Below, one piece after another: positions 3,374 through 7,340 of a stretch of 45,820 bases of DNA (the stretch's first letter is position 1; every line of letters starts with the position of its first letter). Made by a program: the position numbers and the translations under genes. Below the pieces are notes generated by a model. It was not told the origin of the DNA and did no database searches. It saw only the letters and a list, made by a program, of their open reading frames with translations. The DNA is from Synechococcus sp. BSA11S (GTDB taxonomy: Bacteria; Cyanobacteriota; Cyanobacteriia; PCC-6307; Cyanobiaceae), in the NCBI RefSeq assembly GCF_014224355.1, contig NZ_VNWP01000017.1, positions 1 to 45,820 on the forward strand, written 5' to 3'.

Positions 3374-4492
3374 TTGAGGTCGGTGGATGGTCTCAGTCAT
3401 CATGCGCTGACCACCCCGAGTCCCAGAGGCCAGCCTTTGTCCTTTCCCTCCCGTCTGCCCCGTTCTCTGGTGCTGGGCCTGTCCTTCCCGCTCATCGTGC
3501 TGAATCTGTGGGTGGTTGCCGCGCTCTACCGGGCTTTTGAGGGCATCGCCTCCACCTTCATCCTGGCCGGGGTGATCGCCCTGATCCTCAACCTTCCGGT
3601 GCGGCTTCTGCAGCGTCGCCTGGGAATGGCCCGCAGCTGGGCAATCGGCTCGGTCTTTGCCCGCTTTCTTGGCCTTGTGGGCCTTGCGGCGGCCACCTTG
3701 CTGCCAGTTCTGGTCATTCGCTTCTTCGCGTTGACGCAGGTGGTGCCGGAATGGATCTCGACCACCGCCGACCGGCTGGCGTCAGTCACCGGCCAGGTCT
3801 CCTATCTGGGCGTACCGATCGACGAAGGAGAGATCATCCGTGGAATTGCGGGGAACCTCATTGCTCAGCTGGAGGGGCTGTTGCTGAACATTCCCGGATT
3901 CATCGCGGGGTCGCTGGGTAACTTCTTCAGTCTCTTCTTTCTGTTTGTACTCACCATCTTCTTCCTGATCTATGGCGGTGAACTGGTGCGCAACTGCCTG
4001 GTGTCTTGGCTGCCAGAGGAGAGTGGCCTGAGGGTTCTGGGTGTGCTTCGGCGCAACTTCAACAGCTACATCTTCAACCAGCTGATTCTCTCAGCGGTGC
4101 TGATCGGCGTTCTCACGCCAACCCTGTGGCTGCTGCGGGCTCCATTCCCGCTCCTCTCGGGAGTCACGATCGGTCTGATGGGATTCATCCCCTTCGGCGC
4201 CATCCTCGGCATCCTGGTGATCAGTGTGCTGTTCATGCTCAAGAGCTTCTGGCTCGGGCTGCGAATCTTCACGGTGCTGATCGTGGTGGATCAGGTGATC
4301 GAGAATGTGCTGCCGCCGCGTCTGCTGGGCAAGCTCACAGGCCTCAACCCGATCGTGATCCTCTTCTCGGTGATGGTGGGAGCCACGCTGGCTGATTTCT
4401 ACGGCGTGATCACCGCTGTGCCGATCGCCGCCACCATCAAGGCCCTTGCCCTGGATCCCGCTCCGGATCGGGCCCTGGGGGTCAGAGCCTGA
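3374..4492 (+). CDS. AI-2E family transporter (PerM/TqsA-like permease)
   Basis: This is a polytopic inner-membrane protein of about 350-370 residues with the hydrophobic pattern of the AI-2E/PerM family: paired N-terminal helices (LSFPLIVLNLWVVAALY, FILAGVIALILNLPVRLL), a soluble region near residues 125-175 (TTADRLASVTGQ, LIAQLEGLLLNIPG), and the C-terminal signature (IGLMGFIPFGAILGILV, VDQVIENVLPPRLLGKLTGL). The family includes an autoinducer-2 exporter and Na+/H+ antiporters, so the substrate cannot be named. The start is unclear: TTG 3374, GTG 3383 and TTG 3437 are in frame, and the first helix begins soon after 3437. Its 3' end overlaps the convergent merR gene by 11 bp. Confidence 0.85.
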   Translation: MRSVDGLSHHALTTPSPRGQPLSFPSRLPRSLVLGLSFPLIVLNLWVVAALYRAFEGIASTFILAGVIALILNLPVRLLQRRLGMARSWAIGSVFARFLGLVGLAAATLLPVLVIRFFALTQVVPEWISTTADRLASVTGQVSYLGVPIDEGEIIRGIAGNLIAQLEGLLLNIPGFIAGSLGNFFSLFFLFVLTIFFLIYGGELVRNCLVSWLPEESGLRVLGVLRRNFNSYIFNQLILSAVLIGVLTPTLWLLRAPFPLLSGVTIGLMGFIPFGAILGILVISVLFMLKSFWLGLRIFTVLIVVDQVIENVLPPRLLGKLTGLNPIVILFSVMVGATLADFYGVITAVPIAATIKALALDPAPDRALGVRA

Positions 4493-4871
4493 GATTCGGA
4501 CAGATCAGATCGGCTTCCCGGGCGGGATCGCTGCGCCAGCCCGCGAGCAAGCCCTCCAACTCGGTCCTGAGTTGTCCCAGGTCGCTGATCTGTCGCTCGA
4601 TGCGCTTGATCTGATGCTCGAGCATCGCCTGAATGTCCTGGCAGGGCAGCTCGCCGGCATCGTGCACCGCCAGACAGCTCTGGATCTCCTCCAGGGAGAG
4701 GCCCAGGGTCTTGAGCCGGCGGATGAACTCCAGACGCCGCAGGCTTTCTTCGGCGAACAGGCGGTAGCCACCCTCGCTGCGGCCGATTGCCGGCAGCAGT
4801 CCGAGGTCTTCGTAGTAACGGAGGGTCTTGACCGGCAGTCCGCTGCGGGCGGCCAGGGCACCGATCTTCAT
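4482..4871 (-). CDS. MerR-family metal-responsive regulator
   Basis: The 129-residue protein starts MKIGALAARSGLPVKTLRYY, the classic MerR winged-helix opening, followed by the second wing (SEGGYRLF), the KTLGLSLEEI segment and a long dimerisation helix (residues 80-110). Cys66, Cys77 and Cys124 (in ICPN) are candidate metal ligands. Cys77 sits where ZntR/PbrR-type members carry their conserved cysteine, but the two-cysteine C-terminal loop of CueR is not complete. The ATG at 4871 is preferred over an upstream one because it begins the HTH. A MerR-type promoter/operator lies 40 bp upstream and an identical-core site precedes the DUF305 gene, so it probably controls that gene, the oxidase and itself. 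Metal: copper by context, unproven. Confidence 0.9.
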   Translation of the reverse strand: MKIGALAARSGLPVKTLRYYEDLGLLPAIGRSEGGYRLFAEESLRRLEFIRRLKTLGLSLEEIQSCLAVHDAGELPCQDIQAMLEHQIKRIERQISDLGQLRTELEGLLAGWRSDPAREADLICPNLRL

Positions 4872-4910
4872 GGCGCTGACTGGCGTCGGGCGCAGGGTGG
4901 TCCCCATCGG

Positions 4911-4943
4911 CTTGACTCTCCATTTCTGTGGAGACCTTAAATC
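4911..4943 (+). promoter_or_regulatory. MerR-type operator/promoter, copy 1 (beside merR)
   Basis: TTGACT (4912-4917) and TTAAAT are separated by 19 bp, the overlong spacer typical of promoters activated by MerR proteins. Centred in the spacer is the inverted repeat CTCTCC (4916-4921), 8 bp, GGAGACC (4930-4936). The promoter points rightward, away from merR, but the next gene on that side (DUF305) is transcribed leftward. It may therefore serve merR autoregulation, or be left from a lost divergent target gene. The same half-sites recur at 5835-5860. Confidence 0.75.
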
Positions 4944-5058
4944 CGCCCCGGCTGCAGGGATGTCCTGCCATGGCGTGCTCTGGCCTGGTTCAGCTCATGG
5001 GGGCGGCTCCGATCATCCTCAGCGCTCCCTCCGGCTCCTTTTCCAGCCCAGGCCAGCG

Positions 5059-5805
5059 TCAGAGCCGGAAAAGGGCGTCGAACTTGTGATAGTCGGGCTT
5101 GCGCAATCCCTCCACCGCCAGCATGCGACGCAGCTCGATGATCTCGACCCGCTGGGCGAGAATCACCTCCCGGGCAAAGCGGAGGATGGTGGTGTTGTTG
5201 CTCTTGGCCAGGGCGTCATGGGCCATCATCAGCGCGCCGCCGTGGTGCTCCAGCATGCCCTCAAGGAACCACACCACCCGATTTTCTTTGGTGGGGCCGT
5301 TGCCCATCATCCGCATGGCATCGATCTGGGGCTGGCTCATGCGGGTCAGGCCCGAGAGGCTGTCGGGATCCCCACCTGGAGCCAACGCCACGGGGTACAC
5401 CGGGGCCTCGGGATACCAGGCCTTGCGCCACAGTCCCATGGCCCGGATCTCGTCGGCCTGATCGCGCCAGATCGTCTTCCCCAGGGCCCCGACGCCGGGC
5501 TCGCCGATGCCGAAGACGAATTCACTCATGCGCAGGGCACCGGTGTGGTGCTGCACCATGCCGTCGATGAAGCGCAGGTCGTAGGTGGCACCGGCTGGGC
5601 CCAGGTCATGGTCATGGTCATGGTCATGGGCGCCTTGGTCCATCGGCTGGTTTTCTTCGGCTCCTGGTGCAGGGGAGGCCATCGGCATCGTGTGGTTGTG
5701 ATGCCGGTGATCCGCGGCCGGATCCATCTGGGATCGTGCGGGCGGAGCCGTGATGGTCAGCACGCCAAGACCGATCAGGACGGTAGGGAGCAAGGGGTGG
5801 CGCAT
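5059..5805 (-). CDS. Exported His-rich DUF305 protein (putative metal-binding)
   Basis: This 248-residue protein has a signal-like N-terminus (MRHPLLPTVLIGLGVLTITA, then APPARSQ) and a His/Met-rich linker containing HRHHNHTMPM and HDHDHDHD. It then carries two DUF305 repeats: FIDGMVQHHTGALRMSEFV and FLEGMLEHHGGALMMAHDAL. DUF305 proteins are ferritin-like helical proteins often encoded beside copper genes. The His and Met clusters suggest a periplasmic metal sponge or partner of the oxidase. The ATG at 5805 was chosen because it starts the signal peptide and lies just after the operator at 5835-5860. The HDHDHDH stretch comes from a fourfold GGTCAT repeat at 5604-5627, which may vary in length. 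Confidence 0.88.
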   Translation of the reverse strand: MRHPLLPTVLIGLGVLTITAPPARSQMDPAADHRHHNHTMPMASPAPGAEENQPMDQGAHDHDHDHDLGPAGATYDLRFIDGMVQHHTGALRMSEFVFGIGEPGVGALGKTIWRDQADEIRAMGLWRKAWYPEAPVYPVALAPGGDPDSLSGLTRMSQPQIDAMRMMGNGPTKENRVVWFLEGMLEHHGGALMMAHDALAKSNNTTILRFAREVILAQRVEIIELRRMLAVEGLRKPDYHKFDALFRL

Positions 5806-5827
5806 CGCCGGAAAGCGGATCGCGCCA

Positions 5828-5860
5828 ACCGTATGGTCTCCTGCCCACTGGAGAGTCAAG
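5828..5860 (-). promoter_or_regulatory. MerR-type operator/promoter, copy 2 (DUF305/oxidase intergenic)
   Basis: On the minus strand CTTGACTCTCC (5860-5850) is followed by 8 bp and GGAGACC (5841-5835). These are exactly the half-sites of the copy beside merR, with different bases between them. A 19-bp spacer leads to a weak -10 (ATACGG, or TACGGT one base later). Transcription would start about 15-20 nt before the DUF305 ATG at 5805. The oxidase gene starts on the other side at 5895, so one site could serve both divergent genes. Confidence 0.75.
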
Positions 5861-5894
5861 CTTTCGCGCCGGTTGGAGGTTCTACGGTCAAGGA

Positions 5895-7340
5895 ATGGAC
5901 ACCGACATCAGGCGCCGTCAGGTTCTCGCCCTGGGTCTTGCCGGCCTGGGCTCCACCCTTCTCGGCCGACGGCTATGCGCCCAGCAGGCGACAACCCCTG
6001 GCCTGGCGGATCTGGAGCTGGTGGCACGCCCCGTCGCGGGGAGGATCCCCGGCGGACCCAGCGCCCCGCTCACCTACAACGGTCTCACCCCAGGCCCCTT
6101 GCTGGAGCTGCAACCCGACGTTCCCCTGCGCCTGCGCCTGCGCAATGAGCTCGATCAGCCCACCAACCTGCACTTCCACGGCCTGCACATCCCCCCCAGC
6201 GGCAGCGCCGACAATGTCTTTCTCTCGGTGCTGCCGGGGGAAAGCTTCGACTACGCCTTCACCCTGCCCGCCGATCACCCGGCCGGTCTCTTCTATTACC
6301 ACCCGCACCACCACGGCACCACGGCCGATCAGGTGTTTGCCGGGTTGGGCGGCGCCCTGGTGGTGCGCGGGGCGCTCGATCGAATCCCGGAGGTGGCAGC
6401 CGCCACCGAGGCCATCCTGGTGCTCAAGGATTTCGCCAGCGCCGACGCCCCCCAGGGCCAGAGCCAACGCATGGGGATGGGAATGGGAATGGGGCGTGCG
6501 CTGGGTCGCCAGGGGCCCCTGCTCACGGTCAACGGCCAGCTTCAGCCCTCCCTCGAGCTCGCCAGCGGTGGTCTGATCCGCCTGCGCCTGCTCAACGCCT
6601 CCAACGCCCGCATCTACCGTCTTGCCCTGGAGGGTCACCCCCTGGTGCTGATCGCCACCGACGGCGGTGCCATCGGCGCCCCCCAGACGCTCAAGGAGCT
6701 GGTGCTGGCACCGGGCGAGCGGGCCGATCTGCTGGTGCAGGGCAACCAGCCCCCCGGCACCTACCGCCTGCTCGACCTGTGGAGTGCTGGGCGGCCCCAG
6801 ACCCTGGCGAGGGTGAACTACCGGGGATCCGTGGCGCCCCTGCCGCTGCCGACGACCCTGATCCCCGTGCCGGCCCTGCCGGAGCCCCAGCGGACCCGCC
6901 GCTTCGTGCTCTCCCATGGCATGGGGAGGGGTGGTGGCGGCATGGGCATGGGCATGGGCATGGGTGGCATGGGTGCTGGCGGCCGGATGGGCGGGATGGG
7001 GATGATCTTTCTGATCAATGGCCGGGCCTTTGCCCACGCCCGCACCGACACCCGCGTGACCCTGGGCGACACTGAAGACTGGCTGATCGTCAACGGCGAC
7101 CCCCATCTCGATCATCCTTTTCACCTGCACATCAATCCGTTTCAGGTGATCAGCCGCAACGGCCGGCCAGAACCCCAGCGGCAGTGGAAGGACACGGTGC
7201 TGGTGCGTTCAGGCGAGGAGGTACGCCTGCGGGTGGCCTTCAGGGATTTCCCGGGGCGCACCGTGTACCACTGCCACAACCTCGACCATGAGGAGATGGG
7301 GATGATGGGAGTGCTTCAGATCGAGGAGGCCCGCGGCTGA
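5895..7340 (+). CDS. Multicopper oxidase, Met-rich, Tat-exported (CueO/CopA-type)
   Basis: The 481-residue enzyme belongs to the three-domain multicopper oxidases that oxidise Cu(I) or phenols with O2. All four copper-ligand motifs are intact: HFHGLH (93-98), HPHHHG (136-141), HPFHLH (407-412) and HCHNLDHEEMGMM from residue 459, which contains the type 1 copper ligands. The N-terminus DIRRRQVLALGLAGLGS is a twin-arginine signal. Two low-complexity Gly-Met runs (about residues 194-205 and 345-372) resemble the Met-rich copper-binding inserts of CueO. It diverges from the DUF305 gene across a MerR operator, which supports periplasmic copper detoxification. A GGAGG lies 13 nt before the ATG. Confidence 0.93.
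   Translation: MDTDIRRRQVLALGLAGLGSTLLGRRLCAQQATTPGLADLELVARPVAGRIPGGPSAPLTYNGLTPGPLLELQPDVPLRLRLRNELDQPTNLHFHGLHIPPSGSADNVFLSVLPGESFDYAFTLPADHPAGLFYYHPHHHGTTADQVFAGLGGALVVRGALDRIPEVAAATEAILVLKDFASADAPQGQSQRMGMGMGMGRALGRQGPLLTVNGQLQPSLELASGGLIRLRLLNASNARIYRLALEGHPLVLIATDGGAIGAPQTLKELVLAPGERADLLVQGNQPPGTYRLLDLWSAGRPQTLARVNYRGSVAPLPLPTTLIPVPALPEPQRTRRFVLSHGMGRGGGGMGMGMGMGGMGAGGRMGGMGMIFLINGRAFAHARTDTRVTLGDTEDWLIVNGDPHLDHPFHLHINPFQVISRNGRPEPQRQWKDTVLVRSGEEVRLRVAFRDFPGRTVYHCHNLDHEEMGMMGVLQIEEARG

What the first reader, a model, noticed from the sequence alone, without database searches (positions are those of the whole stretch)
4482..7340. Metal-response module: one MerR operator repeated at two sites around a DUF305-multicopper oxidase pair
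Seen: TTGACTCTCC, 8 bp, GGAGACC occurs at 4912-4936 beside merR and, inverted, at 5859-5835 between the divergent DUF305 and oxidase genes. Only the core between the half-sites differs. Both have the 19-bp-spacer layout of MerR-activated promoters. Known: MerR proteins bind such spacers; oxidases of this type detoxify copper; DUF305 is often near copper genes. Inference: a self-contained periplasmic copper defence regulon whose His-rich DUF305 protein is a partner of the oxidase. No P-type copper ATPase is present, so the module differs from the textbook CueR set.
Basis: partly seen in the sequence, partly recalled or inferred. Interest (0 to 1): 0.7.

Follow-up and report, generated by a model that had tools for sequence, protein, structure and literature searches.

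The report
Cyanobacterial MerR copper regulon, partly eroded
The two matching control sites belong to a copper-defence gene set run by a MerR-type protein that recurs in many cyanobacteria, and whose metal-binding residues differ from those of the textbook copper sensor.

Summary
The two sites are real: TTGACTCTCC-N8-GGAGACC occurs exactly twice in the window, and 0 of 100 shuffles gave two hits even at 2 mismatches. They are MerR-type promoter-operators, with a 20-bp, not 19-bp, spacer. The site type is cyanobacterial property: its 22-base core occurs in 82 of 290 genomes of the class, the reversed control in 6; 82 of 102 distinct sites examined there precede a CopZ-like, copper-ATPase, DUF305, oxidase, DUF3721 or the same merR gene. 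The window's own genome has a third site (2 mismatches) 55 bp before a copper P-type ATPase gene on another contig, so 'no ATPase, unlike CueR' fails at genome level. Site 2 serves DUF305 only. The oxidase had its own operator in relatives; here its left half is deleted. Site 1 now faces no credible gene: the DUF3721 pair it drives in relatives is gone. The regulator works like CueR but fails CueR's residue tests (Ser77 is Cys, Cys112 is Trp); Cys77 and Cys124 are invariant in the homologues aligned. Copper as inducer is inferred from gene content, not shown.

The parts
4482..4871 (-). MerR-family regulator (129 aa from MKIGALAA); Cys77, Trp112, Cys124
   Evidence: PF13411 and PF09278; aligned with E. 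coli CueR and ZntR; only match to this query in the window's genome at E <= 0.001
4912..4943 (+). Site 1: MerR operator with -35 TTGACT, dyad CTCC-N8-GGAG and a degraded -10 (TAAATC at 20 bp; TTAAAT at 19 bp); now probably only merR's own operator
4944..5058 (+). Scar where relatives carry one or two DUF3721 genes; flanks match both sides of the pair in G004 and G007
   Evidence: blocks 4812-4996 and 4993-5042 to G004; 4801-4941 and 5009-5048 to G007; the right block is weak in G001; no DUF3721 match in the genome
5059..5805 (-). DUF305 secreted-type protein, 248 aa, two HH motifs inside the domain and a His-rich N-terminal part
   Evidence: PF03713; motifs
5828..5859 (-). Site 2: MerR operator-promoter of DUF305, -35 TTGACT, 20-bp spacer, -10 TACGGT
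   Evidence: same arrangement in relatives
5872..5888 (+). Relic of the oxidase-side operator: right arm GGAG and -10 TACGGT, left arm and -35 missing
   Evidence: alignment with relatives, position
5895..7340 (+). Multicopper oxidase, 481 aa, twin-arginine start, four copper-ligand motifs, Met-rich stretches

Best explanation
The locus is part of a copper-detoxification regulon run by a one-component MerR-type activator. The regulator sits on the dyad CTCC-N8-GGAG inside promoters whose -35 and -10 boxes are 20 bp apart; on binding metal it twists the DNA so that RNA polymerase can use them (established MerR mechanism; not shown here). In this genome the complete targets are DUF305 (site 2) and a copper P-type ATPase on another contig. 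Site 1 is the regulator's own operator, left after its divergent DUF3721 targets were deleted, and the oxidase has lost half of its operator and has probably dropped out of tight control. The inducer is most likely Cu(I).
For: Exact sites; 20-bp spacing; third site before a copper-family ATPase, TIGR01511 604.2 bits against a cut-off of 397; in 290 cyanobacterial genomes 82 carry the core, the reversed control 6; first recognised gene after 102 distinct sites: CopZ-like 33, DUF305 17, ATPase 16, this MerR 10, oxidase 4, DUF3721 2, none 20; three of nine unassigned ones scanned are DUF411, cupredoxin and CusB-type. Operator and regulator co-occur: 23 of 32 genomes with a MerR homologue of 105 bits or more, 0 of 67 without. 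Decay at merR-side sites follows loss of the target: -10 kept in 26 of 27 with a divergent target, 0 of 15 without.
Against: No binding or expression data. NCBIfam CueR cut-off not met (80.4 against 147.4); the best models are CadR-PbrR and MerR, also below cut-off. Cys77 is the mark of divalent-metal sensors in the published rule (PMC11591864, passages). 17 of the 20 unassigned sites have no copper link shown. The third site is a 2-mismatch hit; at 3 mismatches the scan gave 9 matches and the reversed control 5. The 105-bit cut was set after seeing the list, and related genomes are not independent.
Confidence: 0.77

Rival explanations
1. The regulator is a divalent-metal sensor (Zn, Cd, Pb or Hg) of the ZntR/CadR/MerR kind, or a broad one, and the copper genes answer to several metals.
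For: Cys77 where CueR has Ser77, and ZntR's Cys79 and Cys124 counterparts kept; best NCBIfam models are CadR-PbrR 92.4 and MerR 91.5 bits, all below cut-off; in Rubrivivax CadR also drives copper genes (PMC11591864, passages).
Against: The first loop Cys of ZntR and CadR (ZntR Cys114) is Trp here; 72 of the 102 sites counted lead to CopZ-like, ATPase, DUF305, oxidase or DUF3721 genes, and the window genome's ATPase scores best with copper models, cadmium model 389.2 against copper 604.2.
Confidence: 0.17
2. Site 1 still drives a small gene or RNA on the + strand in this genome.
For: The -35 is exact and short + strand ORFs open just downstream.
Against: The -10 is degraded at 20 bp; flanks match both sides of the DUF3721 genes of relatives; no DUF3721 match in the genome, 2 to 6 in each of 13 relatives.
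Confidence: 0.1
3. The oxidase is still copper-controlled through site 2 or a promoter not recognised here.
For: The -10 TACGGT and right arm remain at 5872-5888 and the gene is intact.
Against: Site 2 is oriented towards DUF305; the -35 and left arm on the oxidase side are gone and no good -35 is seen at 16 to 20 bp upstream (read by eye).
Confidence: 0.25

Closest known systems
CueR regulon of Escherichia coli (copA, cueO)
   Same: MerR-type activator, operator inside an over-long promoter spacer, targets a copper ATPase and a periplasmic oxidase.
   Different: Ser77 to Cys77, Cys112 to Trp112; even 22-bp dyad with 20-bp spacer instead of a 21-bp site; adds DUF305, DUF3721 and CopZ-like genes.
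HMRTR subfamily of MerR regulators, cyanobacterial branch (PMC5045206, in-silico prediction; passages read)
   Same: 22-bp site, centre 8 bp from the -35 box, 19-20-bp spacer; a cyanobacterial branch is named.
   Different: I could not see their list of sites or targets; no metal or regulon is assigned to that branch in the passages read.
CopM of Synechocystis PCC 6803 (PMC4335983, passages read)
   Same: Secreted DUF305 protein with HH motifs, copper-linked.
   Different: CopM is under the CopRS two-component system; here a one-component MerR operator. Score 66.9 against the CopM model's cut-off of 90.
ZntR and CadR
   Same: Cys at position 77/79 and at 124; even, long dyad for ZntR (recalled).
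   Different: First loop Cys missing; model cut-offs not met; copper gene set.

Membership tests
CueR (Cu(I)-responsive MerR) | CueR equivalog model TIGR02044 at its cut-off | tested here: not met
   80.4 bits against 147.4
CueR (Cu(I)-responsive MerR) | Cu(I) ligands Cys112 and Cys120, Ser77 | tested here: not met
   Trp112, Cys124 (aligned with Cys120), Cys77
CueR (Cu(I)-responsive MerR) | Regulon with copper ATPase, chaperone, oxidase | tested here: met
   by gene context; oxidase operator truncated in the window
CueR (Cu(I)-responsive MerR) | 21-bp site, centre 7 bp from the -35 box | tested here: not met
   even dyad, centre 8 bp from the -35 (sequence; rule from PMC5045206)
CueR (Cu(I)-responsive MerR) | Activation by Cu(I) | not testable with these tools
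   needs an experiment
ZntR / CadR-PbrR | Three metal Cys (79, 114, 123/124) and model cut-off | tested here: not met
   position 114 is Trp; CadR-PbrR 92.4 against 151.45, ZntR 87.7 against 167.95
HMRTR MerR subfamily (PMC5045206) | 22-bp site, centre 8 bp from the -35, 19-20-bp spacer | tested here: met
HMRTR MerR subfamily (PMC5045206) | HTH_HMRTR conserved-domain assignment | not testable with these tools
   that domain library is not among those held
DUF305 (PF03713) | Pfam gathering score and HH motif | tested here: met
   88.8 bits against 27; HH at 86 and 187
CopM equivalog (NF049983) | Model cut-off | tested here: not met
   66.9 bits against 90
Multicopper oxidase | Three Cu-oxidase domains and ligand motifs HxH, HxH, HPxHxH, HCHxxxH | tested here: met
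CueO equivalog (NF008205) | Model cut-off | tested here: not met
   188.8 bits against 525
Copper P-type ATPase (third site, G000:C38) | TIGR01511 cut-off; CPC, YN and MxxSS motifs (meaning of motifs recalled) | tested here: met
   604.2 bits against 397; motifs at 332, 644, 673

The most novel reading that the evidence does not exclude
Cyanobacteria have their own class of one-component MerR copper sensor in which Cu(I) is held by two cysteines from different subunits (Cys77 and Cys124), with Trp in place of CueR's Cys112. It breaks the published rule that Ser77 marks copper sensors and Cys77 divalent-metal sensors, and runs a regulon of CopZ-like, copA, DUF305, oxidase, DUF411, DUF3721 and, in at least one genome, plastocyanin genes.
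Probability: 0.5. Interest if true: 0.65.

Novelty: new variant of a known kind. Interest (0 to 1): 0.5.

Why it matters
A survey of copper signalling in marine bacteria reports no one-component copper system homologues in its representative Cyanobacteriota (PMC10141476, passages read). The pattern here predicts one in 82 of 290 cyanobacterial genomes sampled, with a defined operator, defined targets and an unusual two-cysteine metal site. That makes metal selectivity in MerR proteins a direct mutational test, gives a functional lead for the small DUF3721 proteins (0 papers in the held library name that family), and the eroded promoters are natural before-and-after pairs for dissecting MerR promoters.

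Tried and rejected
Rejected: 19-bp spacer; no P-type ATPase; one site serving both divergent genes. The loose pattern at 3 mismatches gives chance numbers, and the six 3-mismatch genome hits (reversed control 5) were not followed.

Literature: no paper in the held library names DUF3721. Searches for a MerR-type copper regulator in cyanobacteria listed none that I recognised as describing one; most listed papers were seen only as a listing with the start of the abstract, passages were read in eight, and subscription papers are not held.

I did not model the MerR dimer: the tool folds single chains. I first took the oxidase as the first gene after its operator in all relatives; one search showed that this is so in G007, whereas in G006, G031, G044 and G054 a separate ORF lies between (DUF411 by Pfam in G031; similar sequence by eye in the other three). 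I first took position 112 as never Cys; in the wider alignment two distant rows of 57 (L044, acidobacterial; L144) have Cys there. In one search the regular expression read the L016 site out of register (by eye its -35 is GTGACT and its -10 still not TAnnnT, so the count stands), and L034 was dropped (38 bp upstream only). One duplicate site (L266) was dropped.
Full report
What was checked. The window lies in a 2.88-Mb, 42-contig genome (G000:C9); the nearest named homologues of its merR come from Synechococcus and Cyanobium strains. Both 25-base sites are exact and alone in the window at up to 2 mismatches.

Promoter layout. In 51 distinct sites from 35 fetched stretches and the window, TAnnnT stands 20 bp after the -35 in 45 and at no other spacing from 16 to 22; one of the six exceptions is site 1. 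In 102 further sites TAnnnT is at 20 bp in only 44, but nowhere else, and nAnnnT at 20 bp in 93 against at most 3 at any other spacing. So the spacer is 20 bp, within the 19-20 bp of the MerR literature (PMC5045206, passages). Site 2 has TACGGT at 20 bp and points to DUF305; site 1 has TAAATC and points away from merR.

The missing target of site 1. In relatives the merR-side site drives one or two small secreted-type DUF3721 proteins (PF12518), or a copper ATPase directly (SynAce01 L031; G031). PF12518 has 0 matches in the window's genome and 2 to 6 in each of 13 relatives. The window's flanks align on both sides of the DUF3721 genes in G004 and G007 (weak on the right side in G001), which I read as a deletion. 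Over 42 merR-side sites (L034 left out), the -10 is kept in 26 of 27 with a divergent target and 0 of 15 without; the exact -35 in 24 of 27 and 2 of 15 (Fisher 1.6e-10 and 1.9e-6; relatedness ignored). The dyad CTCC-N8-GGAG remains in 13 of the 15 without a target (read; not in L016 and L036). The two target-less sites that keep TTGACT are the window's and L039's; in L039 an ORF that looks like a transposase by eye stands in that place. This separates the roles: boxes for the divergent gene, dyad for merR.

The truncated oxidase operator. Back to back with the DUF305 operator, an exact operator points towards the oxidase in G006, G007, G031, G044 and G054; in G055 it reads GGAA for GGAG. In G007 the oxidase follows directly; in the other four an ORF stands between. 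From the DUF305 -35 to the oxidase-side -10 is 77 bp in four (G006, G007, G044, G054), 87 in G031, and 24 in the window (coordinates). What is left at 5872-5888 is the right arm and the -10. In G008 the oxidase follows DUF305 in the same direction, in pieces. Of 14 genomes, DUF305 is found in 14; the oxidase in one piece in 6, in pieces in 2, no match in 6.

The rest of the regulon. The genome scan at up to 3 mismatches gives nine matches, the reversed control five. After the two window sites the best, with 2 mismatches (C38:148138), lies 55 bp before a 698-aa ATPase gene of the copper subfamily. Its neighbours are a CutA1-family gene (PF03091) and a short DUF305-like ORF just below cut-off (24.7 against 27). 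The genome has six other ATPase-like matches at six places, some of them parts of one gene, which were not examined. In 290 genomes of the class the 22-base core has 115 places in 82 genomes; the reversed pattern occurs in 6 genomes. I fetched 103 of the 115 (the other 12 belong to genomes already seen or to the window); one was a duplicate. Of the 102, the first recognised gene starting within 600 bases is CopZ-like in 33, DUF305 in 17, ATPase in 16, this MerR in 10, oxidase in 4 (two of them over 500 bases away), DUF3721 in 2, none in 20; 13 of the 102 are from the window's own family. Of the 20 I scanned nine: one DUF411, one cupredoxin, one CusB-type fusion protein, one flavodoxin-like, one TPR protein, four without a family. 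In one search the operator also precedes plastocyanin in G079 (134.8 bits, cut-off 87.85) and a plastocyanin-like protein in G062 (71.3, below cut-off). 'CopZ-like' rests on the HMA domain (PF00403); the copper-chaperone models of NCBIfam were below cut-off.

Regulator and operator go together. In 99 relatives the core occurs in 23 of 32 genomes with a MerR homologue of at least 105 bits and in 0 of 67 without (Fisher 1.5e-15, relatedness ignored; cut set after seeing the list). The reversed control gave no match in those 99. Nine of the 32 have the regulator but no exact core, all outside the window's family. In the window's genome it is the only match to the query.

The sensor. Aligned with E. 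coli CueR and ZntR from the K-12 record, the window protein has Cys77 for CueR's Ser77, Trp112 for Cys112 and Cys124 for Cys120. Cys77 and Cys124 are in 57 of 57 rows and 19 of 19 in a second set that shares only the window row. Position 112 is Trp in 54 of 57, Cys in 2 distant rows, Pro in 1, and Trp 16, Gln 1, Asp 1, Ser 1 in the second set, which includes the ten MerRs that themselves stand under the operator. So it works like CueR by its targets but is not a CueR by residues or model score. That Cys77 of one subunit faces the metal loop of the other is recalled from MerR and ZntR structures and was not tested.

Literature, all seen as passages. PMC5045206 predicted 22-bp sites for an HMRTR subfamily with a cyanobacterial branch, so the site type is not new. 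PMC4335983 supports copper binding for the DUF305 protein CopM. PMC10141476 found no one-component copper systems in its Cyanobacteriota set. PMC11591864 gives the Ser77/Cys rule and a case where CadR also answers copper. PMC4284471 and PMC4182526 describe cyanobacterial copper resistance through CopRS.

Shown: sites, layout, gene context, co-occurrence, residue pattern, decay. Inferred: binding, activation, copper as inducer, subunit-bridging site.

Noticed in passing
G003:C4:30836, G005:C9:835879, G008:C25:11264, G031:C1:2531580, G055:C25:20821: A second, 38-40% identical MerR homologue lies next to another tandem pair of DUF3721 genes in these five genomes: DUF3721 proteins may be general targets of MerR-type metal regulators.
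   Followed up: no
L094 (G079:C31:243192) and L092 (G062:C403:2023): The same operator stands before a plastocyanin gene and a plastocyanin-like gene, in L092 with a perfect TATAAT at 20 bp.
   Followed up: partly
L003:897-1430 (G000:C38): CutA1-family gene and a short DUF305-like ORF divergent from the copper ATPase operator.
   Followed up: partly
L099:8161 (G044) and L243 (G325): Operator before a short secreted-type peptide ending in a CCCC run: possible metal-binding peptide.
   Followed up: no
L196, L203, L209, L230: Operator before short ORFs that share, by eye, a W-x-K/R..G..W motif; the L209 one has no Pfam match: possible unknown regulon member.
   Followed up: partly
L097:9897-10391 and counterparts in L099, L102, L109: A DUF411 gene stands between the operator and the oxidase in these relatives but not in the window or G007.
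   Followed up: partly
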